Assembly (NCBI RefSeq): GCF_004343705.1
Contig: NZ_SKFH01000050.1
Span: 1-32,225, forward strand
Direction: 5' to 3'
DNA: 32,225 bases
DNA from: Flaviaesturariibacter aridisoli
GTDB taxonomy: Bacteria; Bacteroidota; Bacteroidia; Chitinophagales; Chitinophagaceae
The notes beneath the pieces were generated by a model. It saw nothing but the letters and a program-made list of their open reading frames with translations. It was not told the DNA's origin and did not search any database. Positions 31 through 27,254 of this stretch are shown one piece after another (within the stretch, counting starts at the first letter, position 1; each line of letters opens with the position of its first letter). A program made the translations under genes and the position numbers.

Positions 31-60
31 ACTTCCGACTTCGCATTTCCGACTTCCGGA
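31..60. repeat. CTTCCGA-family degenerate intergenic repeat
   Basis: The stretch repeats the unit acttccg/atttccg about four times with small variations. It lies downstream of the minus-strand fasciclin gene, so on that gene's coding strand it reads purine-rich (ggaagtcgg). The same unit occurs before pyrB (12674-12696) in the opposite sense relative to the gene. Confidence 0.6.
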
Positions 61-65
61 CTTGC

Positions 66-644
66 TTACGGCATGAGAACCTTGTCGATCGCGTGTATCA
101 CGCCATTGCTTTGGTACACGTTAGGGATGGTGATCGCAGCGGTGCCGCCTTTCTCATCTTTTACCCACCATTTGCCGGACGCGTCTTTCATGATCCACAG
201 CTTCGCGCCCTGCACCGTAGTCAGTTCGGCCTTTCCGCCGTTTTTGCGCATCTTCCTCTCGAGGTCTTTGCTGTCGAGGCGGCCGGGCACTACGTGGTAC
301 GTAAGGATGCTCGTGAGCAGCGCCTTGTTTTCGGGCTTTACCAGGTTCTCCACGGTGCCGGCGGGCAGCTTGCTGAAGGCCGAATTGGTCGGCGCAAATA
401 CCGTGAAGGGGCCTTTCCCCTGCAGTGTTTCCACCAGGCCGGCGGCCTTCACTGCTGCTACCAGCGTCGTGTGGTCGGAAGAATTGACCGCGTTCTCTAC
501 AATGTTCCGGCTCGGGTACATCGCCGCTCCGCCGACCATTACGGTCTTTTCTTTCATCGAAGCATGCGTGGCGTTCTGGGCGAACGACGAAAAGGACAAT
601 ACAAGGCCGGTCAGCAGCAAGGCTGCATTTTTCAGTTGCTTCAT
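66..644 (-). CDS. Secreted fasciclin (FAS1) domain protein
   Basis: The product is 192 residues. A signal peptide covers about residues 1-22, ending in SSFA before QN. A single FAS1 domain fills the rest: the conserved first box reads FTVFAPTNSAF, the middle has LTYHVV, and the end has GVIHAIDKVL, the typical H2 box. FAS1 domains are small adhesion modules found in secreted or surface proteins; the ligand cannot be read from sequence. An in-frame ATG 63 bp upstream (707) would add a charged 21-residue tail before the signal peptide, so the start at 644 is preferred. It is transcribed away from the EVE gene and may end at the palindrome at 1-30. Confidence 0.9.
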   Translation of the reverse strand: MKQLKNAALLLTGLVLSFSSFAQNATHASMKEKTVMVGGAAMYPSRNIVENAVNSSDHTTLVAAVKAAGLVETLQGKGPFTVFAPTNSAFSKLPAGTVENLVKPENKALLTSILTYHVVPGRLDSKDLERKMRKNGGKAELTTVQGAKLWIMKDASGKWWVKDEKGGTAAITIPNVYQSNGVIHAIDKVLMP

Positions 645-762
645 ACTAAAGTTTTTTGAAGGGTTGAGTGGGTTTCGTACCGGTTTCCGGTGAATCCCGT
701 TGTGCATTAAATACGACGGCCTGTTGCCGTTGGATTTGCGGGGCCAGATTTTTTTTCTGCGC

Positions 763-770
763 TAATTTAG
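763..770 (+). promoter_or_regulatory. Bacteroidota -7 element ahead of the EVE gene
   Basis: TAATTTAG resembles the Bacteroidota sigma-A -7 consensus TAnnTTTG with one mismatch. It lies 19 nt before the ATG at 790, so transcription would start inside a short leader. Confidence 0.4.
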
Positions 771-789
771 CCGCCCAAGCAACCTGACT

Positions 790-1209
790 ATGGCATACTG
801 GCTCATCAAATCCGAACCCTTCAAGTACAGCTGGGAGCAATTCGAGCAAGACGGACAAACCTTTTGGGACGGCGTGCGCAACTACGCGGCGCGCAACAAC
901 CTGCGCGCGATGAAGCGTGGCGACCAGTTGTTTTTTTACCACAGCAATGAAGGCCTCGAGATCGTCGGCATTGCCAAGGTGGTGAAGGAAGCTTATCCCG
1001 ATCCCACCACCGACGAAGACGCCTGGGTGGTGGTGGACGTAGCGCCGGTAAAGCGCTTGAAGGTTCCTGTTAGCCTGAAGACGATCAAGGCCGATCCGCG
1101 CCTCGCCAACATGGCGCTCCTGCGCCTGGGCCGCCTGTCGGTGGCCCCCGTTACCGATGAGGAGTGGGCCATTGTGCTGGAGCATGCGGGTACCAAAGCG
1201 AAAAAATAG
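790..1209 (+). CDS. EVE domain-containing protein
   Basis: The product is 139 residues and is essentially one EVE domain (PUA-like fold, thymocyte nuclear protein 1 family). The start MAYWLIKSEP, the segment WDGVRNYAARNNLR at about residues 27-40, and the later GDQLFFYHSN are family hallmarks. EVE domains resemble YTH/PUA folds and are thought to read modified bases in DNA or RNA; this protein's actual target is unknown. Length is normal for stand-alone bacterial members. It stands alone, divergent from the fasciclin gene, and a lipoprotein gene follows after about 100 bp. Confidence 0.92.
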   Translation: MAYWLIKSEPFKYSWEQFEQDGQTFWDGVRNYAARNNLRAMKRGDQLFFYHSNEGLEIVGIAKVVKEAYPDPTTDEDAWVVVDVAPVKRLKVPVSLKTIKADPRLANMALLRLGRLSVAPVTDEEWAIVLEHAGTKAKK

Positions 1210-1306
1210 GAGGTCGTCTTTTGCATTCCGTTAAGGTTACTTTTCGCGCGGCGGGGTATCAAGAAGTGCAGCTGCACAATCATCTCTTATTCAAAAAAAC
1301 AACGTT

Positions 1307-1708
1307 ATGAAAAGCATACTCCCGGCCATTGCCGGCACGATCCTTTTTGCCTCCGTTTTCGCCTCCTGCAGCTGGCTCAACCGCAAAGCCGAACCCCACT
1401 CCGATATCGCCGGCACCTGGCGATTGGATTCGGTGGTGGATAAAAACGACAGCGTCAATCCGTTGCCGGCGGTGCTGGTAGCCATGGCCGCCGGCGACAC
1501 CGTGCCGGTTACCTACCGGTTCACCGCCGACAGCTTGCATGTTGTCAGCGGCTCCGACGTATTCGAGTCGGCGCCTTACCGCTACGAGAAACCGCAGATC
1601 ACGATCCTCGATTCATCAAAGGAGCAAATGCAGGTAAGCCGTCCTTCCGACAGTGTGCTGGTGCTCCGCACGAGCGACTCGTCGCGGATGTTCTTTACCC
1701 GTCAATAA
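1307..1708 (+). CDS. Small lipocalin-like lipoprotein
   Basis: The product is 133 residues. It has a lipoprotein signal peptide with a lipobox ending FASC, so Cys20 is the likely lipidated residue. The mature part has the pattern IAGTWRLDSV, then alternating short beta-strand segments and a closing SRMFFTRQ. This resembles the lipocalin-like domains common in Bacteroidota lipoproteins, in which GTW marks the first strand. Its ligand is unknown. The last 7 bp overlap tail-to-tail with the minus-strand protease gene, so the two transcripts would be complementary at their 3' ends. Confidence 0.75.
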   Translation: MKSILPAIAGTILFASVFASCSWLNRKAEPHSDIAGTWRLDSVVDKNDSVNPLPAVLVAMAAGDTVPVTYRFTADSLHVVSGSDVFESAPYRYEKPQITILDSSKEQMQVSRPSDSVLVLRTSDSSRMFFTRQ

Positions 1709-2607
1709 CCGAAAAGGTCCGGCCGGAGCTGGTGGCCGATCGTGCCACCCAGCTCCATCAGCCAGGCAATGCCCAGGTGCACGAGCAGCCCGCCCCAGAT
1801 GCTGCGCGTGTGCAGCGTCACCACACCCAGCAGCAACCCGCCAAAGAAGGAGCTGATGCATTCGCCGAGCGGCTTGCCGAAGTGGATCGTACAGTAGAAA
1901 AGCGCCATCGGCAGCAGCGCCGCCGAACCTGCGTAGCGCGCGAACGCCAGCACGAGAAAACCCCGGAAGAACAGTTCGATGGTAACAAAGTCGGAGCCGT
2001 ACGACAGCTCGTACAGCAGCTTTCCGCCCGGGCCGGACTGCCGAACCGCGTCCAGGTGCTGCCACTTGGGGTATACGGCCAGGAAATCGGGCTGCAGGGA
2101 AGCCAGCGCCACCAGTGGTACCATGAAGAGCAGCATAGCGCCATAGGGCCGTAATAGCGAGCCGCCGGACGCAGTGCCATAAAATGGAATATCGGGGTGG
2201 TAATGGCGCCAGAGCGCATAGAGACTGCCGCCGATCAGCAGGAGCTTGAACGGGTAGTAGCAGATCGTTTGCCAGAAGTCGAAGCCGCGTGGAAAGGGCA
2301 GGGGCAGGGCCAGCTTCACCGCGAAGATGGCGGGCGCCAGCAGCAGGAGCATGCGAAAAGGGGCGCCGCGCCCACCGGGAAGCCGGCCGCAACAACGATA
2401 AAGAAGATACGGGCTCCAGAAGGCAAGGGCGAACAGTCCATACCAGGCGGCCAACCGTAATAATACGGGAAGCTGCATCACCCGGGGCTCGAGGCCGTAG
2501 TGGTAATTGCAATAAACAAGCAGCAGCGCCAGCAATACCGTCGGCGCCGCAACTAGTAGCGGCAGCGTACGGATGTAGGTGCGGAGGCCCTGCAAAAGTT
2601 TCTTCAT
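1702..2607 (-). CDS. CPBP-family intramembrane protease, atypical motifs
   Basis: The product is 301 residues and very hydrophobic, with about eight membrane segments. The C-terminal half carries the CPBP (CAAX protease/Abi) signature: ELFFRGF at 211-217 (E211, R215), a His at 242 in FYCTIHFG, and a His at 277 in LLVHLG. Compared with the usual EExxxR, FxxxH and HxxxN motifs, the first Glu is Ile210, the Phe four before His is Tyr238, and the Asn after the last His is Ala281. The catalytic Glu, Arg and both His remain, so activity is possible. Its start overlaps the stop of the upstream VOC gene by 4 bp (ATGA), indicating translational coupling. The substrate is unknown. Confidence 0.8.
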   Translation of the reverse strand: MKKLLQGLRTYIRTLPLLVAAPTVLLALLLVYCNYHYGLEPRVMQLPVLLRLAAWYGLFALAFWSPYLLYRCCGRLPGGRGAPFRMLLLLAPAIFAVKLALPLPFPRGFDFWQTICYYPFKLLLIGGSLYALWRHYHPDIPFYGTASGGSLLRPYGAMLLFMVPLVALASLQPDFLAVYPKWQHLDAVRQSGPGGKLLYELSYGSDFVTIELFFRGFLVLAFARYAGSAALLPMALFYCTIHFGKPLGECISSFFGGLLLGVVTLHTRSIWGGLLVHLGIAWLMELGGTIGHQLRPDLFGY

Positions 2608-2969
2608 GAAGGTTGTTCTTGGCCGAATTGCAGAATGAATCCATTGAGGTCGCGAATGGCGAATTCACGCATGCCCCAGGGGAAGGTTTCAATCGGGTAT
2701 ACGATCTCGCAGTCGTCCTTCAGCCGTTCCCACCAGGCCGCTGCATCCCTGGTGTTGAAATAAAATGATCCGGTGAACAGGGGACCACTGTATGGCATAT
2801 GCGCGGGTGGGCGTGCCAGCATCAGTTCAACGCCGTCGCGACCAAGGCTGGCCCATTGCCAGTCTTCGGAAGATTCCAGTTCGGAAAAGCCCAGTGTCGC
2901 TATATACCAATCGGAGGCAGCCCGGACGTCGGGGACCCAAAGCAGCGGACGCAGGTGCAGCAATTTCAT
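2604..2969 (-). CDS. VOC (glyoxalase/bleomycin-resistance fold) family protein
   Basis: The product is 121 residues, the length of one two-module VOC domain. The opening LRPLLWVPDVRAASDWYI and the closing FAIRDLNGFILQFGQ match the family, whose C-terminal Glu/Gln position often binds metal; here the last module has D-L-N-G-F. The middle ELMLARPP aligns with the usual metal-ligand strand. VOC proteins range from glyoxalases and dioxygenases to antibiotic-binding proteins, and the sequence does not decide which. It is the first gene of a two-gene unit with the CPBP protease (4-bp overlap). Confidence 0.85.
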   Translation of the reverse strand: MKLLHLRPLLWVPDVRAASDWYIATLGFSELESSEDWQWASLGRDGVELMLARPPAHMPYSGPLFTGSFYFNTRDAAAWWERLKDDCEIVYPIETFPWGMREFAIRDLNGFILQFGQEQPS

Positions 2970-3035
2970 CGCAACAAGATTTTAACCTCCATTAACCGAA
3001 AGGGCTGCTAACTTACGTCTTCAAACTAAAGCGCC

Positions 3036-3416
3036 ATGAAAAAGCTTGTACTCCTGCTGGCCCTCACTGCCGGCATTTCCTCGACCTCGCTCTTCGCACA
3101 GGAGCAGCGCGACCCCGCGCAAATGGCCCAGCGCATGAAAGAGCGCATGAAGCCGCAGCTGATCGAAAAAACGAAGCTCTCCGACGCCGACGCCGAAAAG
3201 GTCATGGACCTGATTATCGAGCAGCGCCAGCAGATGCGCGGCTTCCGCGAGCTGTCGCAGGAAGATCGCGTTAAGCGAATGGACGAACTCAACGGCATCC
3301 TGGAAAAGAAACTCTCGGTTATCCCGCTCAACCCCGACCAGGTGAAGACCGTCATGGTTTTCCTGGAGGAGCAGCGCCAGCAAATGCGCAACCGCCAGAA
3401 TGGCGGCGGTCGCTGA
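3036..3416 (+). CDS. Small secreted helical protein, Spy-like in composition
   Basis: The product is 126 residues with a signal peptide ending SSTSLFA before QEQ. The mature part is almost entirely charged amphipathic helix, rich in Met, Gln, Arg and Glu. The heptad EQRQQMR occurs twice (about residues 67-73 and 112-118), each ending a helix of similar length, so it looks like an internal duplication. Periplasmic Spy/CpxP-type chaperones have this composition, but I do not see a clear LTxxQ motif, so that relation is only a suggestion. A strong terminator follows directly. Confidence 0.7.
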   Translation: MKKLVLLLALTAGISSTSLFAQEQRDPAQMAQRMKERMKPQLIEKTKLSDADAEKVMDLIIEQRQQMRGFRELSQEDRVKRMDELNGILEKKLSVIPLNPDQVKTVMVFLEEQRQQMRNRQNGGGR

Positions 3417-3437
3417 TCCCTCATAAACCCCTTGTTA

Positions 3438-3463
3438 AAGCTGCCCCAAGGGGCAGCTTTTTC
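3438..3463 (+). terminator. Rho-independent terminator
   Basis: The arms aagctgcccc and ggggcagctt form a near loopless GC-rich hairpin followed by TTTTCGTTTT. It ends the transcript of the small helical protein 22 bp after its stop. Confidence 0.85.
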
Positions 3464-3467
3464 GTTT

Positions 3468-3475
3468 TACCTTGC
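3468..3475 (+). promoter_or_regulatory. Possible -7 element of msrC
   Basis: TACCTTGC partly matches TAnnTTTG, 18 nt before the ATG at 3494 and just after the preceding terminator's T-run. Confidence 0.35.
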
Positions 3476-3493
3476 AGCCCTTAACGCAACACC

Positions 3494-3976
3494 ATGGCCG
3501 AAGACCTGCAGATCGCCAGCGGCACCCGCGCCGAACAATACGAAGCCCTCATCCCCCAGATCAAAGGCCTTCTCGAAGGTGAGCCCGACCTCGTGGCCAA
3601 CCTCGCCAATGTAGCTGCCGCCCTCAAAGAGCAGTTTGGCTGGCTCTGGACCGGCTTTTACCTCGTAAAGGGTGAGGAGCTTGTACTCGGACCCTTCCAG
3701 GGCCCGGTTGCCTGTACGCGCATCCGAAAGGGCCGCGGCGTTTGTGGCAGCAGCTGGGCACAGGCCCGAACCCTGGTGGTGCCCGACGTTGAAAAGTTTC
3801 CCGGCCACATCGCCTGCAGTTCGCTGTCGCGCTCCGAGATCGTGGTACCCATGCTGCACGACGGAGCCGTTTGGGGTGTGCTCGACGTGGACAGCACCGA
3901 CCTGTCCACCTTCGACGAAACCGACCAGCGCTACCTCGAAGCGATCGTGAAGCTCATCCCTTTTGCATCATTTTAA
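3494..3976 (+). CDS. msrC: Free methionine-(R)-sulfoxide reductase (GAF domain)
   Basis: The product is 160 residues: one cytoplasmic GAF domain of the fRMsr type (yeast YKL069W, E. coli YebR/MsrC). These enzymes reduce free L-methionine-(R)-sulfoxide with thioredoxin, repairing oxidised amino acid rather than protein. Three Cys residues sit at 74 (GPVACTRI), 84 (GVCGSS) and 108 (GHIACSS). The 10- and 24-residue spacings equal those of the three redox Cys of the E. coli enzyme (84, 94, 118; from memory), so the catalytic set is intact. GFYLV, GPFQG and SEIVVP are further family marks. It stands between a terminator and the S41 protease gene, with no obvious operon partner. Confidence 0.93.
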   Translation: MAEDLQIASGTRAEQYEALIPQIKGLLEGEPDLVANLANVAAALKEQFGWLWTGFYLVKGEELVLGPFQGPVACTRIRKGRGVCGSSWAQARTLVVPDVEKFPGHIACSSLSRSEIVVPMLHDGAVWGVLDVDSTDLSTFDETDQRYLEAIVKLIPFASF

Positions 3977-4068
3977 TATTTGGTGAGGGACCTGTTAAAA
4001 GGAGTGGGGAAAAGGATTTCGCGCCCTGTTTTTGCTGTTAGGCGCGCACAACAATCTTCCTACGAAAT

Positions 4069-5442
4069 ATGCCTTTTCCGAAATTCCTGACCTCTGCCTT
4101 GGTCCTGTTGGCCGCAGGGGCCCTGGCCTCCTGCAAAAAGACCGATCTCGTTGCGAACAACTTTACCAGTAATGGTTCTGCCTCCCCCGTAACCGCCACC
4201 TACCGCGACACGGCTGTAGCGTATGCGCGGGAGATCTACCTCTGGAATGACCAGATTCCCACCTCGTTCAGCGGCGCCTCCTACAGCGATATCAATGCCC
4301 TCATGACCGGCCTGCGCCAATACAGCCAGGAGTCGGGCTTCAGCGGTCCCGTAGACAAGTGGAGCTTTGCCGTTCCGAAAGCCGAGTGGGACCACGTAAG
4401 CGGCGGCACCGCCACCGGTGACTTCGGCTTTAGCGTGTTCTTTCGCAGCGCTTCCGACCTCCGCGTAAAGCACGTGGAAGTGGAGTCGCCCGCGGGCCTG
4501 GCCGGCGTTCGCCGCGGCTGGCGCGTGGTCAAGATCAACGGATCAAGCAATATTTCAACCGCCAATACCGATTACGTGGTGCAGAACGTGTTCCAGAGCG
4601 CTAATACCACCTTCACCTTCGCGAAGCCCGACAACAGCCAGGTAACCCTGTCGCTGAATGCCAGTACCTACCGGGAACATCCCATCATCAAAGACACGGT
4701 GCTGCAGGAAGGCGGGCGGAAGATCGGCTACTTTGCCTTCAACTCCTTTATGGGCGACAGCCTCACCGTACTTGGCGGCTTCCGCACGGCATTCTCGCGT
4801 TTCGTCAGTGCCGGCGTCAACGACCTCGTGGTGGACCTTCGTTACAACGGCGGCGGTTATGTGTACATGCAGGAAGCGCTGGCCAACTACATCGCCCCGA
4901 TGTCGGCCAACGGAAGCGTGATGATGAAGCAACAGTTCAATGCCCGCAACAGCGCCTACAACGAGACGACGAACTTCCACAAGCTCGGCGCCCTCAACCT
5001 TCCCCGCGTGATCTTTATTGTCAGTAAAAGCACTGCTTCGGCTTCGGAACTGCTGATCAATAACCTGAAACCCTACATGGAGACTGTGCTTGTGGGCCCC
5101 GGCGCTACACACGGCAAGCCGGTCGGCTTCTTCCCGATACCGGTGCAGGATTGGTACATCTTCCCGGTTTCTTTCCGCACCGTTAACCGCAACGGGGAAG
5201 GCAATTACTTCAACGGGCTGCCCGTCAATGCGACCATTGCCGACGGTCTGGACAAGGATTGGGGTGATCCCGCGGAAGCCAGCCTGTCTGCGGCCATCAA
5301 TTACGCCGTGAATGGTACCTTCCGGGTTGCCGGACGCAGCAGTGATGCGCCCTCGGCCGATGGCAGCCTGAATGCCGTCAACAGCCGCCTCGAGCGCCCC
5401 GGCATCCGCGGTACGTTTGACACCCGCGGCCTTCGCCACTAG
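4069..5442 (+). CDS. S41-family (C-terminal processing) peptidase, lipoprotein
   Basis: The product is 457 residues. A lipoprotein signal ends at ALASC with two Lys following, so the enzyme is probably anchored in the envelope. After a helical N-terminal domain comes a PDZ-like segment at about residues 125-175 (VESPAGLAGVRRGWRVVKING). The S41 core follows: FNSFMG, DLVVDLRYNGGGYV, then the TASASE motif at 322-327 with the nucleophile being Ser324 or Ser326, and THGKPVG with the general-base Lys350. Such proteases cut proteins near their C termini. Bacteroidota have many lipoprotein members of unknown substrate. The last 40 residues, rich in Ser, Gly and Arg, lie beyond the core. A bidirectional terminator follows. 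Confidence 0.9.
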   Translation: MPFPKFLTSALVLLAAGALASCKKTDLVANNFTSNGSASPVTATYRDTAVAYAREIYLWNDQIPTSFSGASYSDINALMTGLRQYSQESGFSGPVDKWSFAVPKAEWDHVSGGTATGDFGFSVFFRSASDLRVKHVEVESPAGLAGVRRGWRVVKINGSSNISTANTDYVVQNVFQSANTTFTFAKPDNSQVTLSLNASTYREHPIIKDTVLQEGGRKIGYFAFNSFMGDSLTVLGGFRTAFSRFVSAGVNDLVVDLRYNGGGYVYMQEALANYIAPMSANGSVMMKQQFNARNSAYNETTNFHKLGALNLPRVIFIVSKSTASASELLINNLKPYMETVLVGPGATHGKPVGFFPIPVQDWYIFPVSFRTVNRNGEGNYFNGLPVNATIADGLDKDWGDPAEASLSAAINYAVNGTFRVAGRSSDAPSADGSLNAVNSRLERPGIRGTFDTRGLRH

Positions 5443-5464
5443 TCGTTTCACCCTTAACCATAAC

Positions 5465-5499
5465 AAAAATCCCCCGCGCTCCGGCAAAGGGGATTTTTT
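5465..5499. terminator. Bidirectional terminator between convergent genes
   Basis: The arms aaaaatcccc and ggggattttt enclose a 14-nt loop. The flanking A and T runs serve both directions, ending the S41 gene on the plus strand and the short secreted-protein gene on the minus strand. The minus gene's TAA stop (5498-5500) lies inside the arm. Confidence 0.8.
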
Positions 5500-5728: not shown

Positions 5729-5831
5729 GGTTTTTCTTTGGCAAAAGACGTGCGCAAGGCGCCGGCGGTGGCCTGTGGCATTGTGAAAAGCGGAATGGCA
5801 CAGTATTTCGGGAAAGGGAGAAAAAGCAGTT

Positions 5832-6050: not shown

Positions 6051-6059
6051 ACGATCGCT

Positions 6060-6260: not shown

Positions 6261-6335
6261 TGGCTACGGCGTGTTGCTCAACCGGCGGGTGGCGGCATTC
6301 CCATTGCCGGCTCCCGGAGGCCCCGCCCGGGCACT

Positions 6336-6343
6336 TAACTTTG
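6336..6343 (+). promoter_or_regulatory. -7 element TAACTTTG, 4 nt from the start codon
   Basis: A full match to TAnnTTTG ends 4 nt before the methyltransferase ATG (6348). The transcription start should fall at or next to the A of ATG, predicting a leaderless mRNA. Confidence 0.65.
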
Positions 6344-6347
6344 TGGC

Positions 6348-7445: not shown

Positions 7446-7577
7446 GGTAAGGGTGTTTCCGGAAAAAGTGCAAAAGCCCTGCCAGTCTTCGGCGGCGCTC
7501 AGAGGAACAACCGGTTGCGCACCGGGGCTGAAGTTCATCCACCCGGTTGAAAGTGAAACAGACGTACAAAACTCATC

Positions 7578-7610
7578 ACCCCATTAGCAGATTACCCCAT
7601 TACCCCATTA
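7578..7610. repeat. TTACCCC-family repeat before prfB
   Basis: The unit attacccc occurs in three degenerate copies and runs directly into the -7 element of prfB, filling the place where the -33 element should be. A complementary array (gggtaat type) lies just after the prfB stop, at 8721-8753. Confidence 0.65.
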
Positions 7611-7622: not shown

Positions 7623-8715
7623 ATGACACAAGAAGCGATTAAAGATATGAGGGACCGCGTCGTTGTCCTGAGGAGGTTTCTTTGACGTCGAGAACCGACG
7701 CCATAAGATAACCCAGGACAAACAACTGTCCCTGTCGCCCGGATTCTGGGACGACAATGCCCGCGCGACGGGTGTACTGAAAGAAATCAAGGTCAACGAA
7801 TACTGGATCGGCCTTTACGAGACCGTGGAAGGCGCCGTGGAAGACTTTGCCGTACTGTTCGAATTCTGGAAGGAAGGAGAGGGTACGGAAGAGGACGTGC
7901 GCGCCGCCTACGAAAAGTCGCTGGCCGCCATTGAAGATGCCGAGTTCAAGAGCACGCTCAACCAGCCCGAAGACGAGCTGCCGGCGGTGCTGCAGATCAA
8001 CTCGGGCGCCGGCGGCACCGAAAGCCAGGACTGGGCCGAAATGCTCGCCCGCATGTACCGCATGTATGGTGAAAAGCAGGGCTGGTCGGTTACGGAGCTC
8101 GATTGGCAGGACGGCGACGGGGCCGGTATCAAAACCGCCACGTACCAGTTCGACGGACCCTTTGCCTACGGATTCCTCAAGGCCGAAAGCGGCGTGCACC
8201 GCCTGGTGCGCATCTCGCCCTTCGACTCGAACGCCCGCCGGCACACGTCCTTCGTATCCGTGTTCGTGTACCCGCTCGTAGACGATTCGATCGAGATCGA
8301 GATCAAGCCTGCCGACATCAAGATGGAAACATCGCGAAGCGGCGGCGCCGGTGGTCAGAACGTGAACAAGGTGGAAACGAAAGTTCAGCTCACCCACATA
8401 CCGACGGGTATCGTCGTGGTGTGCCAGCAGGATCGTTCGCAGTTGGGCAACCGTGAGCGCGCGATGGAAATGCTCCGCAGCCGCCTTTACGAGATCGAAT
8501 TGCGCAAGCGAAACGAAGCCAAGGACGCGGTCAACGCCAATAAGAAAAAGATCGAGTGGGGCTCCCAGATCCGCAGCTACGTTTTTCACCCGTACAAAAT
8601 GATCAAGGACCACCGCACCGACTACGAAGTAGGCAACATCGGCCCGGTGATGGACGGTGAGCTCGATGGATTCATCAAGGCTTACCTGATGTCGCAGAAG
8701 GATGACGAGAGTTGA
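7623..8715 (+). CDS. prfB: Peptide chain release factor 2, with programmed +1 frameshift
   Basis: RF2 releases the finished protein at UGA and UAA codons. The zero frame codes 20 residues ([20 protein letters not shown]) and meets TGA at 7683-7685. A +1 slip on CTT (7680-7682) continues with GAC at 7684 and gives a full 363-residue protein, close to the usual length. The frameshift site is classic: AGGAGG at 7671-7676, three spacer bases, CTT TGA C. In the product the stop-codon-reading SPF motif is at 198-200 and the peptidyl-transfer GGQ motif at 243-245, the same 45-residue distance as in E. coli. The site senses RF2 level: low RF2 lets the ribosome pause and shift. The gene is flanked by complementary repeat arrays. 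Confidence 0.97.
7671..7686 (+). promoter_or_regulatory. prfB: prfB programmed frameshift signal
   Basis: The signal reads AGGAGG, TTT, CTT, TGA, C. The internal Shine-Dalgarno sequence lies three bases before the slippery CTT, as in E. coli (AGGGGG, TAT, CTT, TGA, C). It pulls the ribosome one base forward when the UGA is read slowly. Confidence 0.95.
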
Positions 8716-8720
8716 GCAAA

Positions 8721-8753
8721 TCGGGTAATGGGGGAATTGGGTAATCGGGTAAC
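8721..8753. repeat. GGGTAAT-family repeat after prfB
   Basis: The stretch holds three to four degenerate units (gggtaat, gggggaatt, gggtaat, gggtaac). It is the complement of the array ahead of prfB, so the gene is bracketed by inverted copies. Confidence 0.65.
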
Positions 8754-8784
8754 GAGAATTACGGCAGGCCCCTCTTCCCAAGGA

Positions 8785-8817
8785 GCTAATCAACGAATAG
8801 ACTAATAAACAACAACC
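8785..8817. repeat. CTAATAAAC-family repeat directly before pruA
   Basis: The units gctaatcaac, gaatag and actaataaac run up to the ATG of pruA, so they would form its 5' leader. The complement of this family occurs after porP and after the M56 gene (23297-23331 and 23401-23434). Confidence 0.65.
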
Positions 8818-12079: not shown

Positions 12080-12102
12080 ATGAATCAACCAATAATCCAA
12101 CA
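12080..12102. repeat. CCAATAATC-type repeat ahead of pyrR
   Basis: The stretch atgaatcaaccaataatcc belongs by composition and unit size to the CTAATAAAC family. It includes an in-frame ATG that would extend PyrR, but its repeat nature argues that it is non-coding. Confidence 0.4.
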
Positions 12103-12142: not shown

Positions 12143-12673
12143 GTGAAGTCGATTCTTCCCGCCGGCCAGATGGCGCTTACGATCCAGCGGCTGGCGCACC
12201 AGTTGCTCGAAGACCCGGACCTGCTGTCGAAGACCGCGCTGATCGGCATTCAGCCGCGCGGCGTGTTTTTATCCGACCGGCTGGTGCAGGAGCTGCGCCG
12301 AGAGCCCGGTACGCCCTCCTTCGATTATGGCAAGCTCGACATCACTTTCTACCGCGACGACATCCGCCAGGGCCTGCATGTACCGGCTGCTACCGACATC
12401 GGCTTTTCAATTGAAGGCAAGCGCGTGGTCCTGGTAGACGATGTGCTGTATACCGGCCGCACCATCCGCGCCGCCCTCGACGCGCTGATGGACTTCGGCC
12501 GCCCGGCGCGCGTGGAGCTGCTCGTACTGATCAACCGCCGCTATAGCCGCGAGCTGCCGGTGCAGCCCGATTACACCGGCCGCCACATCGACTCCATCGT
12601 GTCGCAAAAGGTGAAGGTCCTGTGGGCCGAACGCGACGGGCGCGACGAGGTGCTGCTGCTCGACAATGATTAA
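12143..12673 (+). CDS. pyrR: PyrR: pyrimidine regulator / uracil phosphoribosyltransferase
   Basis: From the GTG at 12143 the product is 176 residues, near the usual 180. The PRPP-binding loop reads VVLVDDVLYTGRTIRAAL (D99, D100, T104-R106). Other family marks are LIGIQPRGVFLSDRL, LDITFYRDD and the late RELPVQPDYTGRHI. PyrR binds UMP and pyr mRNA in Firmicutes and also converts uracil plus PRPP to UMP; regulation in Bacteroidota is not established here. The GTG start aligns with the B. subtilis start region (from memory). An ATG at 12080 would add a 21-residue tail coded by repeat-like DNA. pyrB follows 41 bp later. Confidence 0.93.
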   Translation: MKSILPAGQMALTIQRLAHQLLEDPDLLSKTALIGIQPRGVFLSDRLVQELRREPGTPSFDYGKLDITFYRDDIRQGLHVPAATDIGFSIEGKRVVLVDDVLYTGRTIRAALDALMDFGRPARVELLVLINRRYSRELPVQPDYTGRHIDSIVSQKVKVLWAERDGRDEVLLLDND

Positions 12674-12696
12674 CTTCCGACTTCCATCTTCCGACC
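12674..12696. repeat. CTTCCGA-family repeat between pyrR and pyrB
   Basis: Three units (cttccga, cttccat, cttccga) stand directly upstream of the -7 element of pyrB, occupying the expected -33 region. The complement of this family follows the fasciclin gene's stop. Confidence 0.65.
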
Positions 12697-12699: not shown

Positions 12700-12707
12700 T
12701 AACTTTG
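12700..12707 (+). promoter_or_regulatory. -7 element TAACTTTG of pyrB
   Basis: A full TAnnTTTG match ends 7 nt before the ATG at 12715. pyrB may therefore have its own near-leaderless transcript besides read-through from pyrR. Confidence 0.6.
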
Positions 12708-22269: not shown

Positions 22270-22275
22270 CGTACT

Positions 22276-23298
22276 ATGAGAAAAAGCCTGTTGAGTATAC
22301 TGGGAGCGGGGCTGACCCTTGCCGCGGCGGGGCAACAGCGGCCACACTATACCCAGTATATCCTGAACAACTACATCCTTAACCCCGCCCTGACGGGCGT
22401 CGAGAATTACGGCGATCTGAAATTCAGCATTCGCGACCAGTGGGCCGGTCTTAACGGTGCACCAAGGACCACCTACCTGTCGTATCACCAGCCGATCGGG
22501 AAGCAGGACTTCAAGCCTTCGCCAACCGGTTTCGGGATCCCGGGCGAAAACCCGCGCGGTGAAGAATACTGGGGCGCCTACGAAGCGTCTGCACCGCACC
22601 ACGGCGTCGGCTTCGTGCTCATGAACGACCGTACCGGCAACTTGAATCGGTTTACCGCCGATGTGTCGTACGCCTACCATATGGGACTGAGCTCCAAATT
22701 GAACCTCGCGGCGGGCTTTTCGGCAGGGGTAACCAAAATGGGGTACGACCGCTCGAAGGCGACCCCCGCAGTGGCCAATGATGTGGCACTGGGCGATGTG
22801 AACGTGTATATCAGCAAGGTCCGCCCGGACCTGAACCTTGGCCTTTGGCTCTATGGCGCCGACTTCTTCGCCGGCCTGTCTGCGCAGCAGGTGATCCCGC
22901 AGAAATACGTGGTGGCCGACGATGCTTCGTTCAACAAGGGCAAGCTCGTGCCGCACCTGTTCGGCACCCTGGGCTACCGCTTTCTGCTGTCCGAAGACAT
23001 CAACACAACGCCATCGGTGATGGTGAAATATGTGGCCGGCGCCTCGTTGCCGCTGCAATACGATCTCAATGTGAAGTTCCAGTACCGCGACCTGATCTGG
23101 CTGGGTGGCGGCTACCGGGTGAAAGAAGGTTACTCCGGTATGCTGGGACTGAACGTAGCCAATACGTTCAACATCAGCTATGCCTACGATTATACCACGA
23201 CGGTCATCAACACGGCCAGTAAAGGCACCCACGAGCTGATGATCGGCTTCCTGCTCGGCAACCGCTACGGCGACACCTGCCCGCGCAACGTCTGGTAA
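22276..23298 (+). CDS. PorP/SprF family T9SS membrane protein
   Basis: The product is 340 residues with a signal peptide ending in AAAGQ. The opening RPHYTQYILNNYILNPALTGVENY is the mark of the PorP/SprF family, outer-membrane beta-barrels needed for secretion or anchoring of T9SS type B substrates such as SprB. Later strands include HHGVGFVLMNDRTGNLNRF, ADVSYAYHMGLSSKLNLAAGFSAG and LIWLGGGYRVKEGYSGMLGLNVA, and the chain closes near HELMIGFLLG. It begins 6 bp after the PKD adhesin gene, so the two form an operon and the barrel probably serves that adhesin. A strong hairpin follows. Confidence 0.93.
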   Translation: MRKSLLSILGAGLTLAAAGQQRPHYTQYILNNYILNPALTGVENYGDLKFSIRDQWAGLNGAPRTTYLSYHQPIGKQDFKPSPTGFGIPGENPRGEEYWGAYEASAPHHGVGFVLMNDRTGNLNRFTADVSYAYHMGLSSKLNLAAGFSAGVTKMGYDRSKATPAVANDVALGDVNVYISKVRPDLNLGLWLYGADFFAGLSAQQVIPQKYVVADDASFNKGKLVPHLFGTLGYRFLLSEDINTTPSVMVKYVAGASLPLQYDLNVKFQYRDLIWLGGGYRVKEGYSGMLGLNVANTFNISYAYDYTTTVINTASKGTHELMIGFLLGNRYGDTCPRNVW

Positions 23299-23331
23299 AT
23301 TGGTCTATTGGTTAATTGGTAAATTGGCAAG
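23297..23331. repeat. ATTGGTCTATTGG-type repeat after porP
   Basis: The stretch repeats attggt about four times with variations. It is the complement-type strand of the CTAATAAAC/CCAATAA family and follows the stop codon of the PorP/SprF gene. Confidence 0.6.
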
Positions 23332-23350
23332 ACAATACTTCGCACAGCAA

Positions 23351-23385
23351 AACAAGAAAGCCGCTCGTAAAGCGGCTTTCTTGTT
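23351..23385. terminator. Bidirectional terminator, 15-bp perfect stem
   Basis: aacaagaaagccgct and its exact complement flank the loop CGTAA. It lies between the convergent PorP/SprF and M56 genes and can end both. Short T- and A-rich tails occur on each side but no long T-run. Confidence 0.8.
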
Positions 23386-23400
23386 GGTATGTATTACGTT

Positions 23401-23434
23401 ACTAATAAACCTATAGACTAATAAACCAATAAAC
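23401..23434. repeat. CTAATAAAC-family repeat after the M56 gene
   Basis: The units actaataaac, ctatag, actaataaac and caataaac lie just past the stop of the minus-strand M56 gene. On that gene's coding strand they read gtttattagt. Confidence 0.65.
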
Positions 23435-23440
23435 GTGCTC

Positions 23441-25126
23441 TTATAGTTTCACCGAGCCGTTCTTGTCTTTGCGTCCTTTCAGCATGTCGATTTCGGCGAT
23501 CTTCTGCCGGAGTTCTTTACGCACTTTGCGCAGTTCCGCCACAGACAAATCGGGGAGGGGCGTGGCCGCGGGGCGGGCGGTGGCTACTGTTGCTTTTTCG
23601 AGCTGGGCAAGCGCCGAGCGGTAAACCGACTGCACGCTATCGAGGCGGGCGAGGGCGATCTGTTCGTTCAGCTGTCCGTTGATGCGCTCGAGGTCTACTT
23701 CACCCTGGCCATAGCCGTTCTGGAGGTTCTTCTCGAAGCGCTGCCAGTTGATAGCGTCCACCTGGCTCAGGTACTGGCGGCGGGCCACCTCGCGTTCGCC
23801 GGCGGTAAGGCCGTCGGGAAAGTTACGCTCCACTTCCGACCATTGTACTTCGAGCAGCTGGCGGGCGTTGGAAACGGCCGATTGCACCTCCGAGCGCTGC
23901 TGGTCGGTAAGACTGGCGGTGCTTTCCTGGAAAGCAACCGTGCGGTAGACCGGGATATCGACGGCTGCTTCTTCGGTTTCAACTGCCGGCGGCGGGGGCG
24001 GGGCTACGGCCACTGCTTCCTGTGCAACTGTTGAAGCGGCCTGCTCCACCAGCTGCACCGTTTCGCGTAGCGGGGCTGTGGGCGCAGGTTGGTGGTACGG
24101 TGCCAGGCTCTCATCGAGCTGCAGGAACGCATAGGGAGCGCCATTGCCGCTGTAAGCAAAAGCAGTTGCGGTACCGCGGGAGGCGATCACCAGTGAGTTG
24201 AGGGTGAAAAGCAACATCAGCGCAGCAAAGGCACCCATCAGGTGCTGCACGTTGAGGCGTTGCTTTTTCTGAACGCCTACGATCCGTTCAATGCGGTGCA
24301 ACAGGTTGTTGCCCTTGGTAGCGCCCATGGCGAGGGCGGCACTGCGGTGGTTGGATTTTTCGAGCTCCAGCAGGGCCGAAGCATAGGCCACTTTGTCGTA
24401 TTCGAACTGGAGCACCAGCTCATCGCAGCAGTTCTCCCGTTCGGCCTCGAGGGCGCGGATGAACAGGCGGACGAAGGGGTTGTAATAGAGGACCACATGC
24501 AGTGCCGTCACGAACAGGTTTACCAGGTAATCGTAGCGGCGGATATGCGTCAGCTCGTGGAGCAACACGGCTTCGAGCTGCGCCGGGGTCAGGTTGTTGA
24601 CCGCGGCCAGCGGCACCAGGATCACGGGCTTCAGGTAGCCCACGGTCATCGGGGAGGTAACCAGGTTGGAGAGGTATACACGCACCGTTTTTCGAATGCC
24701 GATATGCGCGGCGATCTTAGCAACGAACATCCGCGTTTTCACCGGCGCCTTCGAGAGGCCGCTGCTACGGATCGCCTGGAGGTAGCGCCAGTTGCGGTAT
24801 ACATTGAAGGCAGGTACTACCAGCAGCAGCAGGTAGGCAACAGAGGCGGCCGTCAGAACCGTCGGAAGCACGCCGTCCGCAAAGAACGGCAGGTCCGGGA
24901 AGCTGAAGGCCGATTGCCCGTTGGTATAATAGGAGTAGAACGTCCAGCCGGCCCAGGCGGCGCCGAGCGCAAGGCTGTACACAGCCTGCAGGTAATTACG
25001 GTTGCTGTTGGGGCGGACGAAGTGCCCGGTGAACTGGTACCCACACCAAAGCAGCCCCATTTGCCAGAAGCTGTTAAGGGTCGCCCAGCCGAGGGCTTGC
25101 AGAAAAACGGACTGGCTCCAGGCCAT
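23441..25126 (-). CDS. M56-family membrane metalloprotease (BlaR1/MecR1-like)
   Basis: The product is 561 residues. The N-terminal half has membrane helices near 10-30, 45-65 and 85-108, then the zinc-protease core: HELTH at 190-194, and ERENCCDE at 229-236 supplying the third ligand. A further helix near 296-315 leads to a long outside part (320-561) rich in Ala, Glu and Gln, probably coiled coil, with a Pro-rich spot near 380. This part is not the penicillin-binding sensor of BlaR1, so the signal sensed is unknown. The protease is expected to inactivate the BlaI-type repressor coded just 1 nt upstream. Confidence 0.92.
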   Translation of the reverse strand: MAWSQSVFLQALGWATLNSFWQMGLLWCGYQFTGHFVRPNSNRNYLQAVYSLALGAAWAGWTFYSYYTNGQSAFSFPDLPFFADGVLPTVLTAASVAYLLLLVVPAFNVYRNWRYLQAIRSSGLSKAPVKTRMFVAKIAAHIGIRKTVRVYLSNLVTSPMTVGYLKPVILVPLAAVNNLTPAQLEAVLLHELTHIRRYDYLVNLFVTALHVVLYYNPFVRLFIRALEAERENCCDELVLQFEYDKVAYASALLELEKSNHRSAALAMGATKGNNLLHRIERIVGVQKKQRLNVQHLMGAFAALMLLFTLNSLVIASRGTATAFAYSGNGAPYAFLQLDESLAPYHQPAPTAPLRETVQLVEQAASTVAQEAVAVAPPPPPAVETEEAAVDIPVYRTVAFQESTASLTDQQRSEVQSAVSNARQLLEVQWSEVERNFPDGLTAGEREVARRQYLSQVDAINWQRFEKNLQNGYGQGEVDLERINGQLNEQIALARLDSVQSVYRSALAQLEKATVATARPAATPLPDLSVAELRKVRKELRQKIAEIDMLKGRKDKNGSVKL

Positions 25127-25127
25127 G

Positions 25128-25511
25128 TTACTTGGTTTTGAGGTTATTCAGCAATTTCTGAATCTGCTCTAACTCCTCGGGGCTCGCGTTGTGCTCACCC
25201 AATGCCTGCAACACTAATTGCGTCGAAGATCCGCCAAAAAGCGAATCGATCATCTTGGTCAGTAAATGTTTCTGGGTCTTTTCCTTGTTCACGGCCGGCT
25301 GGTACACATGCGTACGCATCGACTCGTCGCGCTTTACGATGCCCTTTTCGTGCATGATCTGCATCAGCTTCAGCGTGGTGGTATAGCCCACATCCTTCGT
25401 CTTCGCGAGCTCCTCGTGCACTTCCCGAACCGTTGCAACTCCTTTCGTCCAAAGGATTTGCAGGATTTCGAGCTCGCTTTCCGTGGGTTTGATGGTTTTC
25501 GGTGCTGCCAT
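25128..25511 (-). CDS. BlaI/MecI-family transcriptional repressor
   Basis: The product is 127 residues, usual for BlaI/MecI. The winged helix reads PTESELEILQILWTKGVATVREVHEEL (about 8-34), then the recognition helix and wing VGYTTTLKLMQIMHEKGIVKRDE. The C-terminal part serves for dimer formation and bears the site normally cut when the signal arrives. It is followed after 1 nt by the M56 protease, the standard pair. An ATG 18 bp upstream (25529) is also in frame; the 25511 start gives the usual short head. A palindrome and a -7 element lie just upstream and could mark self-repression. Confidence 0.93.
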   Translation of the reverse strand: MAAPKTIKPTESELEILQILWTKGVATVREVHEELAKTKDVGYTTTLKLMQIMHEKGIVKRDESMRTHVYQPAVNKEKTQKHLLTKMIDSLFGGSSTQLVLQALGEHNASPEELEQIQKLLNNLKTK

Positions 25512-25531
25512 AACTAATCTTGATTTCAAAA

Positions 25532-25539
25532 CGAATATA
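25532..25539 (-). promoter_or_regulatory. -7 element TATATTCG of the blaI-like gene
   Basis: On the minus strand TATATTCG (TAnnTTYG type) lies 20 nt before the ATG at 25511, inside the 32-bp gap after the hydroxylase gene. Confidence 0.5.
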
Positions 25540-25543
25540 CGAC

Positions 25544-26488
25544 CTATTTCGTACGAACGCCTCCGTGCCCTTCGTTTTTGGGGACGTTAACATTATTTAA
25601 CATTTCATGGCCGGGGTCCAGCATTCCGCTTTGGGCACGCAGTTGCCTCGTCGTCAGCGTACTTCCATCGGGGCTCCAACCGGGTGCACCGAACAGGTAA
25701 CTCATTCGCTCCTGCCAGTTCCGGGCCCGAACCACCTGGCGGAGCAGGTCGCCCCATGTTTTCAGGGCTACGACCACCGGGTGGAACGACCCGATATTCC
25801 GCGTCAGTCCATATGTCGGGCGTTCCTCCTCGGGCTGGAAGGTGCCGAAGAGGCGGTCCCAGATGATCAGGATACCGCCATGGTTTTTGTCGAGGTACTT
25901 CAGGTCGGAGCCGTGGTGCACGCGGTGGTGCGACGGCGTGTTGAGTAAAAACTCAAGCGGCCGCGGCAGCCGCTGCACCAACTCGGTATGGATCCAGAAC
26001 TGGTAGATGAGACTTACCTGCTGCATCAGCAGGATCCAGACGGGCGCGAAACCGGCGAGCGGCATCCAGGCCCAAAAGAGAAAGGTCCCCGTAAGATTAC
26101 CGGTCCAGGTTTGCCGCAGCGCCGCCGCGAGGTTATATCGTTGCGAAGAGTGATGCACCACGTGCGAGGCCCAGAACCAGTTCACGTTGTGGGCGCTGCG
26201 GTGAAACCAGTAGTAAGAAAAGTCATCGGCGAGGAAGAGCAGGGGCCAGAACCACCAGTGCGTTGCCGAAAGGTCGAATAGGCGGTAGCGATACAACAGC
26301 GTGAACAGTCCGAAGATGAGGGCTTTGGTAAGAAAGCCGGAGAGCACGTTGCCGACGCCGAGCGCCAGCGAACTCCAGGTGTCCTTTGTATCATAGAGGC
26401 TGCGCTGCTCGCGCGCGGAGAGCCAGGCCTCCAGGGAAAGCAGCAGCAGGAAGAACGGGATCGCATAAAGGACGAGGGCCGGAGGCAT
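25544..26488 (-). CDS. Fatty acid hydroxylase / sterol desaturase superfamily membrane protein
   Basis: The product is 314 residues with several membrane helices. The histidine clusters that hold the di-iron centre are all present: HRSAH at 96-100, HVVHH at 109-113, and HHRVHH at 187-192, plus H167 and H203. The family hydroxylates or desaturates lipids; the exact lipid is not clear from sequence. The C-terminal 60 residues continue past the core to GGVRTK. It starts 3 nt after a TACCTTTA element. It lies upstream of the blaI-like gene in the same direction, so its promoter could also feed the repressor and protease genes. Confidence 0.92.
   Translation of the reverse strand: MPPALVLYAIPFFLLLLSLEAWLSAREQRSLYDTKDTWSSLALGVGNVLSGFLTKALIFGLFTLLYRYRLFDLSATHWWFWPLLFLADDFSYYWFHRSAHNVNWFWASHVVHHSSQRYNLAAALRQTWTGNLTGTFLFWAWMPLAGFAPVWILLMQQVSLIYQFWIHTELVQRLPRPLEFLLNTPSHHRVHHGSDLKYLDKNHGGILIIWDRLFGTFQPEEERPTYGLTRNIGSFHPVVVALKTWGDLLRQVVRARNWQERMSYLFGAPGWSPDGSTLTTRQLRAQSGMLDPGHEMLNNVNVPKNEGHGGVRTK
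25548..25557. promoter_or_regulatory. Palindrome TTCGTACGAA, possible BlaI-type operator
   Basis: This perfect 10-bp palindrome stands 8 bp upstream of the blaI-like -7 element and within the last codons of the hydroxylase gene. BlaI family operators are dyads over their own promoter, but the sequence differs from the Staphylococcus TACA/TGTA type, so this is a guess from position. Confidence 0.4.
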
Positions 26489-26491
26489 ACT

Positions 26492-26499
26492 TAAAGGTA
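26492..26499 (-). promoter_or_regulatory. -7 element TACCTTTA of the hydroxylase gene
   Basis: On the minus strand TACCTTTA, one mismatch from TAnnTTTG, ends 3 nt before the ATG at 26488. Confidence 0.5.
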
Positions 26500-26594
26500 C
26501 CGGTTCAAAAGTAATTTGCTATGGCTGAGCGGGCTTTGCACAGAATTTGTTAAGGGATTGGCGATCGTTTCATTTACCCCAAAAAACCATACGT

Positions 26595-27125
26595 ATGAAA
26601 AAAGGAAAGATCCTCTTTCTCGCTTCCGCCTTCGCCCTGACCCTGACCGCCTGTGACAAGGATAATGATGAGGGCAACAACAATGGCACCGAAACAAGCA
26701 ACACCCAGGATGTGAACTTTGCGCTCCAGGCTTCGTTTGCCAACAAGGCGGAGATCGCCGCGGGCAACATCGCCAGCCAGCGCGCTACCAACGCCGGTGT
26801 GATGAGCTTTGCCCAGATGATGGTGACCGACCACTCGACGGCTCAAACCCAGCTGCAGACGGCGGCCAACAACGCCCGCCTGTCCATCACTGCCGATACG
26901 AGCTCCTTCGCCGCGGTTCGTCAGCAACTCCTGGCACTGAGCGGACGAGCGTTCGACAGCACCTATATTACCATGCAGGTAGCCGGCCACCAGGCCACGC
27001 TGGCCCAGCTGCAGGCGGAAGCCACCAACGGCGCTTCGCCTTCGCTGAAGGCCTATGCCACCCAGCAGATCCCGCACGTGTCCGAGCACCTGCGCGTAGC
27101 GGATAGCCTTCGCCTGCACCTGTGA
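26595..27125 (+). CDS. DUF4142 lipoprotein
   Basis: The product is 176 residues. The lipobox ends LTAC and is followed by an Asp/Asn/Gly-rich linker. From about residue 38 the DUF4142 four-helix bundle runs: DVNFALQASFANKAEIAAGNIASQRATNAGVMSFAQMMVTDHSTAQTQLQ, matching the family with its late H-V-x-E-H (QIPHVSEHL). DUF4142 proteins are ferritin-like in fold and lie in the envelope; no function is firmly established. It stands alone, divergent from the hydroxylase gene, and two small hairpins follow it. Confidence 0.92.
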   Translation: MKKGKILFLASAFALTLTACDKDNDEGNNNGTETSNTQDVNFALQASFANKAEIAAGNIASQRATNAGVMSFAQMMVTDHSTAQTQLQTAANNARLSITADTSSFAAVRQQLLALSGRAFDSTYITMQVAGHQATLAQLQAEATNGASPSLKAYATQQIPHVSEHLRVADSLRLHL

Positions 27126-27144
27126 TCCGTGAGGAGTAAGGAGG

Positions 27145-27196
27145 AATCAGTGGCCCTTGCCACTGAACCGGAATGAGGAGCCGAAAGGCTCCTTTT
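27145..27196 (+). terminator. Tandem hairpins ending the DUF4142 gene
   Basis: The first hairpin is tcagtggc-CCTT-gccactga (27145-27164). The second is aggagcc-GAAA-ggctcct (27174-27191) followed by TTTTC, a standard terminator. A purine-rich stretch (gaggagtaaggaggaat, 27130-27146) sits just before. Confidence 0.8.
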
Positions 27197-27215
27197 TCGT
27201 GCCCACTCCACTTCA

Positions 27216-27254
27216 ACATTCCTCATTCCGTGTTCCCTGTTCCTTCTTGTTGTT
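27216..27254. repeat. ATTCC/GTTCC-type degenerate repeat
   Basis: The stretch repeats attcc, gttcc and ttcttg units. It lies beyond the hppA stop and reads purine-rich on that gene's coding strand. A purine-rich counterpart follows the DUF4142 stop at 27130-27146. Confidence 0.45.

What the first reader, a model, noticed from the sequence alone, without database searches (positions are those of the whole stretch)
31..27254. Degenerate intergenic repeats that obey a start/stop orientation rule
Several short repeat families (CTTCCGA at 31-60 and 12674-12696; TTACCCC at 7578-7610 and 8721-8753; CTAATAAAC/CCAATAA at 8785-8817, 12080-12102, 23297-23331 and 23401-23434; purine/TTCC-type at 27130-27146 and 27216-27254) lie only next to genes. 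At every copy I found, the C/A-rich strand is the coding strand when the repeat precedes a start codon (prfB, pruA, pyrR, pyrB), and the complementary G/T- or purine-rich strand is the coding strand when it follows a stop codon (fasciclin, prfB, porP, M56, DUF4142, hppA). Different families share one polarity, which simple microsatellite growth does not predict. A role in mRNA ends (5'-3' pairing, stability, translation start) or a transcription-linked mutation bias could explain it. I know of no described element with this rule.
Basis: partly seen in the sequence, partly recalled or inferred. Interest (0 to 1): 0.78.

Follow-up and report, generated by a model that had tools for sequence, protein, structure and literature searches.

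The report
Paired inward-pointing repeat arrays between genes
Many gaps between genes in this Bacteroidota bacterium hold short tandem repeats whose G-rich strand points away from the nearer gene, often as mirrored pairs; the same rule is in print for one G-rich repeat in Xanthomonas and Nostoc, and here it also holds for many repeat sequences with too few G-runs to fold into standard G-quadruplexes.

Summary
In 1.602 Mb of the window's 4.37-Mb genome I found 253 intergenic arrays (period mostly 7, then 8, 9) against 0.0 in dinucleotide shuffles; 201 of 243 with a skew obey the polarity. A second detector gives 224 of 262.

The rule is not about starts and stops. It is strand-symmetric: the G-rich strand reads away from the nearer gene, in convergent, divergent and tandem gaps. 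Arrays often form inverted pairs: 55 adjacent G..C, none C..G; 34 of 55 share a unit family against 6.5 expected. The start/stop rule follows from this architecture.

At orthologous gaps of sister species occupancy recurs (37 of 319 against 17.8 expected) and polarity mostly agrees (26 of 32), while units are alike in only 10 of 32.

New here: many families (40 clusters of consensus units), only 9 of 253 arrays with four GGG tracts, family turnover. The cause of the polarity is unsolved; I favour slippage plus template switching between inverted arms.

The parts
31..63 (-). ACTTCCG-type array, 7-bp period; G-rich on the minus strand, downstream of the fasciclin stop; the far side of this gap is off the contig
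   Evidence: TRF score 36; lag-scan score only 10
7574..7610 (-). TTACCCC-type array, 8-bp period, C-rich on the prfB coding strand; runs into the TATCTTTG box at 7609; prfB ATG at 7623
8719..8752 (+). GGGTAAT-type array, 8-bp period, G-rich on coding strand, directly after the prfB stop (8715)
12673..12695 (-). ACTTCCG-type array in the 41-bp tandem gap between pyrR stop and pyrB start; C-rich on coding strand; TAACTTTG box follows at 12700
   Evidence: (TRF 32); not in the lag-scan list at score 11
23293..23330 (+). Left arm of an inverted pair: TTGGTAAA-type array, 8-bp period, G-rich on +, over and after the porP stop (23298)
   Evidence: pairs with the right arm
23351..23385 (.). Terminator-like hairpin (15-bp stem) in the spacer between the two arms of a convergent gap
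   Evidence: fold of 23293-23440, z -7.9 against shuffles
23401..23434 (-). Right arm of the same pair: CCAATAAA-type array, C-rich on +, downstream of the M56 stop (23441) on the minus strand
27130..27146 (+). Weak G/A-rich left arm after the DUF4142 stop; not an array by itself, but pairs in the predicted fold with the pyrimidine-rich stretch at 27212-27248
   Evidence: fold of 27126-27260, z -4.5; not called or 55
27177..27192 (.). GGAGCC-GGCTCC inverted repeat followed by a T-run, in the spacer; seen in the sequence, not the predicted minimum-energy pairing of the whole gap
   Evidence: sequence
27212..27248 (-). ATTCCTC-type array, 7-bp period, C-rich on +, on the H+-pyrophosphatase stop side of a convergent gap
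   Evidence: lag-scan score 14

Best explanation
The repeats are arms of strand-symmetric inverted arrays in gaps: [gene] - (G-rich unit)n - spacer - (reverse-complement unit)n - [gene], complete or with one arm decayed. Read from either gene, the array's G-rich strand runs 5'->3' away from that gene and toward the middle of the gap. Shown here: polarity, inverted pairing, arms sharing a unit family, the same polarity in all gap types, and different units at the same gap in sister species. Inferred: the arrays are born and rewritten at the DNA level, by 7- to 9-nt slippage in non-functional gap DNA plus template switching between the inverted arms (quasi-palindrome type), which keeps the arms in one family without keeping the order of the units; selection sets the outer limits at stop codons, promoters and start codons. 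Why the G-rich strand leads into the gap is not explained by known steps. My guess is that expansion is favoured when the nascent strand approaching a mid-gap hairpin or stall is G-rich.
For: Polarity 201 of 243 and 224 of 262 by two detectors; own genome, two relatives and 74 named Bacteroidota loci pooled: convergent 64 of 78, divergent 63 of 78, tandem 234 of 295, 18 skew-free set aside. Adjacent pairs: G..C 55, C..G 0, GG 6, CC 6, three with a skew-free member; second detector G..C 48, C..G 1, GG 5, CC 5, 8 with a skew-free member. Arms share units in 34 of 55 against a shuffled mean of 6.5, maximum 13, but unit order is not mirrored: 33 pairs tested, mean z -0.01. Single arrays often keep an inverted 6-mer partner on the inner side: 77 of 122 against 47.7 in mononucleotide shuffles; same orientation 44 against 37. 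Arms of pairs lie close to the genes (median 12 and 9 bp) with a median spacer of 39 bp. Orthologous gaps: both occupied 37 of 319 against 17.8 expected within length bins, maximum 28; same-side arrays agree in polarity in 26 of 32 (one of them without skew in both) and share units in 10 of 32. Window gaps 23293-23440 and 27126-27260 fold arm to arm (z -7.9, -4.5). Homogenisation of inverted-repeat arms by template switching is described (PMC8604942, abstract start).
Against: No step here shows slippage or template switching; they are inferred. About 15-17% of arrays break the polarity. Outside the genus the picture is noisier: in the Bacteroidota loci convergent gaps obey only 5 of 9, and adjacent pairs are G..C 14, GG 8, C..G 1, CC 1; in relative G010 G..C is 5 of 10 adjacent pairs, in G016 13 of 15. 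Family sharing does not fall clearly with spacer length (13 of 21, 11 of 14, 10 of 20 for under 30, 30-60 and over 60 bp), which template switching would predict. The identity gradient along arrays is slight (-0.015, SE 0.008) and does not show the growing end. Ordinary hairpins in array-free gaps have C-rich 5' arms (187 against 65), so G-first is not a general hairpin property. The gap 8716-8817 does not fold better than shuffles (z 0.26). The start side is stricter than the stop side, so selection near starts probably acts too. My gene caller is simple and misplaces some starts.
Confidence: 0.4

Rival explanations
1. mRNA-end selection: C/A-rich, G-poor leaders before starts are favoured for translation in Bacteroidota, G/T-rich tails after stops are tolerated or favoured.
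For: Nearer a start in tandem gaps 76 of 77 obey; array-free gaps are also C-skewed just upstream of starts (-0.26 in the first 15 nt).
Against: Convergent gaps contain no start yet 32 of 40 arrays obey, 41 of 47 by the second detector; array-free gaps show no matching G skew after stops (-0.08 to +0.03 in the first 60 nt); arrays on the two sides of a gene do not match (3 of 42).
Confidence: 0.17
2. G-quadruplex elements as considered for GGGNATC repeats: the G-rich strand folds and acts on transcription or translation.
For: G-C skew predicts polarity best: 201 of 243, against 192 of 248 for keto skew, 149 of 243 for T-A and 126 of 243 for purines.
Against: 9 of 253 arrays have four GGG tracts and 82 have four GG tracts; 39 arrays without any GG still obey 28 to 11.
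Confidence: 0.07
3. Mobile inverted-repeat elements (MITE- or REP-like) inserted in gaps, with heptamer arms.
For: 73 of 247 array gaps share non-array sequence with another gap, more than the 138 of 773 array-free gaps; some spacers, e.g. around GGCGTGA arms, recur.
Against: Units differ at the same gap between species (10 of 32 alike); G005 (100% complete) and G008 (84%) have no Y1-transposase match but 30 and 366 GTSA-array pattern matches; other transposase types were not searched; length gain per array base is 0.61 over 56 gaps, not a fixed element length.
Confidence: 0.12
4. Telomere-like healing: breaks in a gap get G-rich repeats added to both 3' ends and are rejoined, giving G..filler..C with one family.
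For: Predicts G..C order, shared family and unmirrored unit order.
Against: Terminator-like hairpins lie inside some spacers in convergent gaps; no template or enzyme was sought beyond Ku. Ku is not needed: G012 and G005 have no Ku match but 127 and 30 GTSA-array pattern matches, and G013 has two Ku matches and no pattern match (other array families not counted there); the genomes of four array-rich loci (L097, L117, L119, L162) have no Ku match, that of L092 has one. The window's own genome has two.
Confidence: 0.1
5. Bidirectional Rho insulators: any transcript entering a gene meets a C-rich, G-poor stretch, any transcript leaving meets a G-rich one.
For: Fits the strand symmetry and all gap types.
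Against: Arrays are mostly four or five units, short for a rut site (recalled); the same rule holds in Nostoc (PMC4692102), and cyanobacteria lack Rho (abstract start of PMC13289151, listing).
Confidence: 0.08

Closest known systems
GGGNATC / GGGGA(C/T)T heptamer repeats of Xanthomonas and Nostoc (Rehm et al. 2015, PMC4692102; abstract, sections 3, 13 and 16, and passages read)
   Same: Heptamers over-represented in gaps; G-rich strand antisense just upstream of starts and sense just after stops; convergent pairs (70 in Xcc, 75 in Xac); loci shared between the two species with length and sequence variation; no known function.
   Different: There one G4-forming type; pairs were few in Nostoc; repeats scarce between divergent ORFs. 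Here many unit families, few with G-runs, periods 7, 8 and 9, arms matched by family, units differing between sister species at the same gap; divergent gaps are occupied in 30 of 223, convergent 36 of 187, tandem 135 of 711.
TAACTGA direct repeats (MacGregor 2015, PMC4679880; abstract and sections 10 and 23 read)
   Same: Intergenic heptamers, mostly forward just before starts in a Maribeggiatoa; in the Bacteroidete Flexibacter litoralis 12 of 14 sets forward before a start and one reversed right after a stop, a small precedent for the rule in a unit without G-runs.
   Different: A single unit without G-C skew; read as translational regulation; in a sample of 24 sets from Microcystis the orientation was mixed; no inverted pairing in the sections I read. 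The unit does not occur twice in tandem in my sample.
Heptanucleotide repeats of Calothrix (reported via the introduction of PMC4692102; original not read)
   Same: Tandem heptanucleotides, three kinds in one genome.
   Different: No polarity analysis seen.
Quasi-palindrome template-switch mutagenesis (PMC8604942, PMC7202029, PMC8794818; abstract starts only)
   Same: Inverted-repeat arms kept alike by DNA synthesis.
   Different: No tandem units and no G-first polarity in what I saw.

Membership tests
Rehm-type G-rich heptamer repeats | Heptamer tandem units concentrated in gaps | tested here: met
   169 of 253 arrays have period 7, 52 period 8, 22 period 9; in a first 432 kb, 51 of 60 arrays at score >= 14 lay in gaps
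Rehm-type G-rich heptamer repeats | G strand antisense near starts, sense near stops | tested here: met
   201 of 243; 224 of 262
Rehm-type G-rich heptamer repeats | Convergent inverted pairs (Xanthomonas) | tested here: met
   55 G..C, 0 C..G of 70 adjacent pairs
Rehm-type G-rich heptamer repeats | G-tracts able to form a quadruplex | tested here: not met
   9 of 253 arrays with four GGG tracts
Rehm-type G-rich heptamer repeats | GGGNATC consensus | tested here: not met
   two tandem GGGNATC units: 0 in 1.602 Mb; top consensus units GTAGTTT 34, GGCGTGA 29, GGTTTATT 13
Rehm-type G-rich heptamer repeats | Preference for four units | tested here: inconclusive
   82 of 190 period-7 arrays have four units, 61 five, 10 three; the score cut-off removes shorter arrays
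TAACTGA repeats | Unit TAACTGA in tandem | tested here: not met
   0 in 1.602 Mb, both strands
REP / RAYT elements | Partner Y1 transposase in the genome | tested here: inconclusive
   14 of 18 genus genomes have PF01797, own genome 7 matches; G005 and G008 have none but have arrays
REP / RAYT elements | Single 20-40 bp palindrome with a GTAG or CGTC tag | not tested
   feature from the title and abstract start of PMC3733652; not searched for

The most novel reading that the evidence does not exclude
A sequence-agnostic DNA-level process, at work in Bacteroidota and, going by the published repeats, in Xanthomonas and Nostoc, writes short tandem arrays into the gaps between genes with a telomere-like polarity (G-rich 3' direction facing away from each gene), homogenises the two sides of a gap, and exchanges the unit family as species diverge while the architecture persists.
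Probability: 0.2. Interest if true: 0.85.

Novelty: new variant of a known kind. Interest (0 to 1): 0.55.

Why it matters
The polarity was known for one quadruplex-forming repeat and discussed in terms of quadruplexes. Finding the same polarity and pairing across dozens of unit families (116 consensus units, 40 clusters at one mismatch, 14 at two), mostly without the G-runs a standard quadruplex needs, moves the explanation from the sequence of the repeat to the geometry of the gap. It also offers a test system: sister species share the gaps but often not the units. If the process is mutational, part of the intergenic sequence in such bacteria is being rewritten by a polar mechanism for which I know no name.

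Tried and rejected
Base composition of gaps as the cause: array-free gaps show C skew mainly just upstream of starts and no G skew after stops. Fold-back copying of a whole arm: unit order not mirrored. Hypervariable columns within units: mean z 0.58, 7.8% of 153 arrays above 1.64, not enough; the tables fixed the core by the search pattern and are not used as evidence. Excess of C-G exchanges within arrays (20% against 11.5% by composition): dropped, because ortholog substitutions in this genus show 23.7% C-G as well. Growth direction: no clear gradient; periodicity just outside arrays 0.24 on the 5' and 0.27 on the 3' side of the G strand. Ku/end joining as a requirement: rejected. 5'-3' pairing across a gene: rejected. 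Rfam: no match in the window at gathering scores. A TAnnTTTG box between array and called start was found in 30 of 116 start-side arrays; 211 of 1354 called starts have one within 60 nt upstream, so this is only a remark. I found no paper that states the rule for several families together or as a general rule in Bacteroidota (searches, of an open-licence library only); the F. litoralis counts in PMC4679880 are a partial precedent.
Full report
What was checked. The window is contig 50 of an 84-contig, 4.37-Mb assembly. Its best named matches by the pruA protein are Terrimonas ferruginea (81%) and a Flavihumibacter MAG (79%), Chitinophagaceae in my recall. One of these three starts at an in-frame pyrR ATG. 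Pfam supports the gene names.

Genome scale. I took 1.602 Mb of the genome (window included) in stretches, called genes with a simple codon model, and scanned gaps for lag-5 to lag-12 self-similarity. There are 1125 gaps of at least 15 bp. At score 13 or more, 253 arrays are seen against 0.0 in three rounds of dinucleotide shuffles; periods are 7 (169), 8 (52), 9 (22) and others (10). E. coli K-12, 50 kb and 29 gaps, gives none.

The rule. Taking the G-over-C strand as the pointer, 201 of 243 arrays point away from the nearer gene (10 without skew set aside), and 141 of 157 within 20 nt of a gene. Tandem Repeats Finder run on the same sequence gives 224 of 262, and 176 of 203 with one vote per gap, p = 5.5e-28. 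The rule holds in convergent (32 of 40), divergent (32 of 40) and tandem gaps (137 of 163). With one vote per gap each gap type is separately significant in the lag-scan set, p from 0.003 to 6e-11. Pooled with two relatives and 74 of 80 Bacteroidota loci it is 64 of 78, 63 of 78 and 234 of 295; in the Bacteroidota loci alone convergent gaps give only 5 of 9. G minus C predicts best; keto skew 192 of 248, T minus A 149 of 243, purines 126 of 243.

What it is. Arrays come in inverted pairs: of 70 adjacent pairs, 55 are G then C, none C then G, 6 GG, 6 CC, 3 with a skew-free member. Arms of a G..C pair use the same units in 34 of 55 cases (shuffled mean 6.5, maximum 13), without a clear fall with spacer length. 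Unit order is not mirrored. Single arrays (152 of 217 occupied gaps at score 12) tend to have a decayed inverted partner on the inner side (77 of 122 against 47.7). Outside the window's genome the pairing is noisier: G016 13 of 15 G..C, G010 5 of 10, Bacteroidota loci 14 of 24 with 8 GG and one C..G. In the window, the two convergent gaps 23293-23440 and 27126-27260 pair arm to arm and fold far better than shuffles; 8716-8817 does not. The start/stop rule is the shadow of this strand-symmetric design.

How it evolves. Gaps of two sister species (pruA 92% and 91% identical) were matched by their flanks with each other and with the window's genome. Of 319 orthologous gap pairs (98, 89 and 132 for the three species pairs, so not independent), 37 have arrays in both, 59 in one, 223 in neither; 17.8 are expected in both when shuffled within length bins, maximum 28 of 2000 shuffles. 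Same-side arrays agree in polarity in 26 of 32, one of them without skew in both, and share units in 10 of 32. The GTSA-NNN family shows species-specific triplets: GGC and AGC here (110 of 161), ATC first in G010 (4 of 12, few), GCC and GAT in G016 (30 of 42), mostly ATG in the listed part for G005. Arrays present in one species only add 0.61 base per array base (56 gaps), so they partly lengthen and partly replace the gap.

What it is not. It is not a quadruplex device in general: 9 of 253 arrays have four GGG tracts (82 have four GG tracts), and arrays with no GG obey 28 to 11. It is not 5'-3' pairing: families do not match across genes (3 of 42, shuffled 4.0). It is not a simple transcription-linked bias, since sense strands are opposite at the two ends. 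Ku is not required, nor a Y1 transposase (G005, G008).

Literature. Rehm et al. [quoted passage not shown] MacGregor 2015 (PMC4679880) reports TAACTGA repeats before starts, also in five Bacteroidetes, with F. litoralis close to the rule (12 of 14 forward before a start, one reversed after a stop) and a mixed Microcystis sample. I found no paper that states the rule for several families together or as a general rule in Bacteroidota.

Mechanism. The strand symmetry argues for a DNA-level process centred on the gap. Slippage plus template switching between inverted arms explains unit-sized arrays, shared families and unmirrored order; it does not explain why G leads inward. I give this 0.4 and leave break healing, mobile elements, Rho insulation and selection at starts as rivals. 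The near-perfect start side in tandem gaps (76 of 77 against 61 of 86 at stops) suggests selection also acts there.

Noticed in passing
window 7623-8715: prfB opens with an ATG at 7623 ahead of the long ORF called from 7825, which looks like the layout of a programmed frameshift (biology recalled; the shift site was not examined).
   Followed up: no
own genome, array-free gaps, e.g. C7:13146-13294, C5:188024-188199, C2:203523-203762: Other dispersed inverted repeats flank terminator-like hairpins (CCCCTTCCC / GGGGATGGG type; GAAGAGAAGAAG ... CTTCTTCTC type); long-range inverted repeats in array-free gaps lean to a G-rich 5' arm (50 against 23).
   Followed up: partly
own genome, array-free gaps: Ordinary hairpin stems of 8 bp or more have a C-rich 5' arm (187 against 65, 37 even), the opposite of the arrays.
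   Followed up: no
L085 (relative G006), just after the prfB stop: A GTCAGGA array, G-rich on the sense strand, sits where the window has its GGGTAAT array.
   Followed up: no
window 7609 and 12700: TAnnTTTG boxes (Bacteroidota -7 element, recalled) directly follow the arrays upstream of prfB and pyrB.
   Followed up: partly
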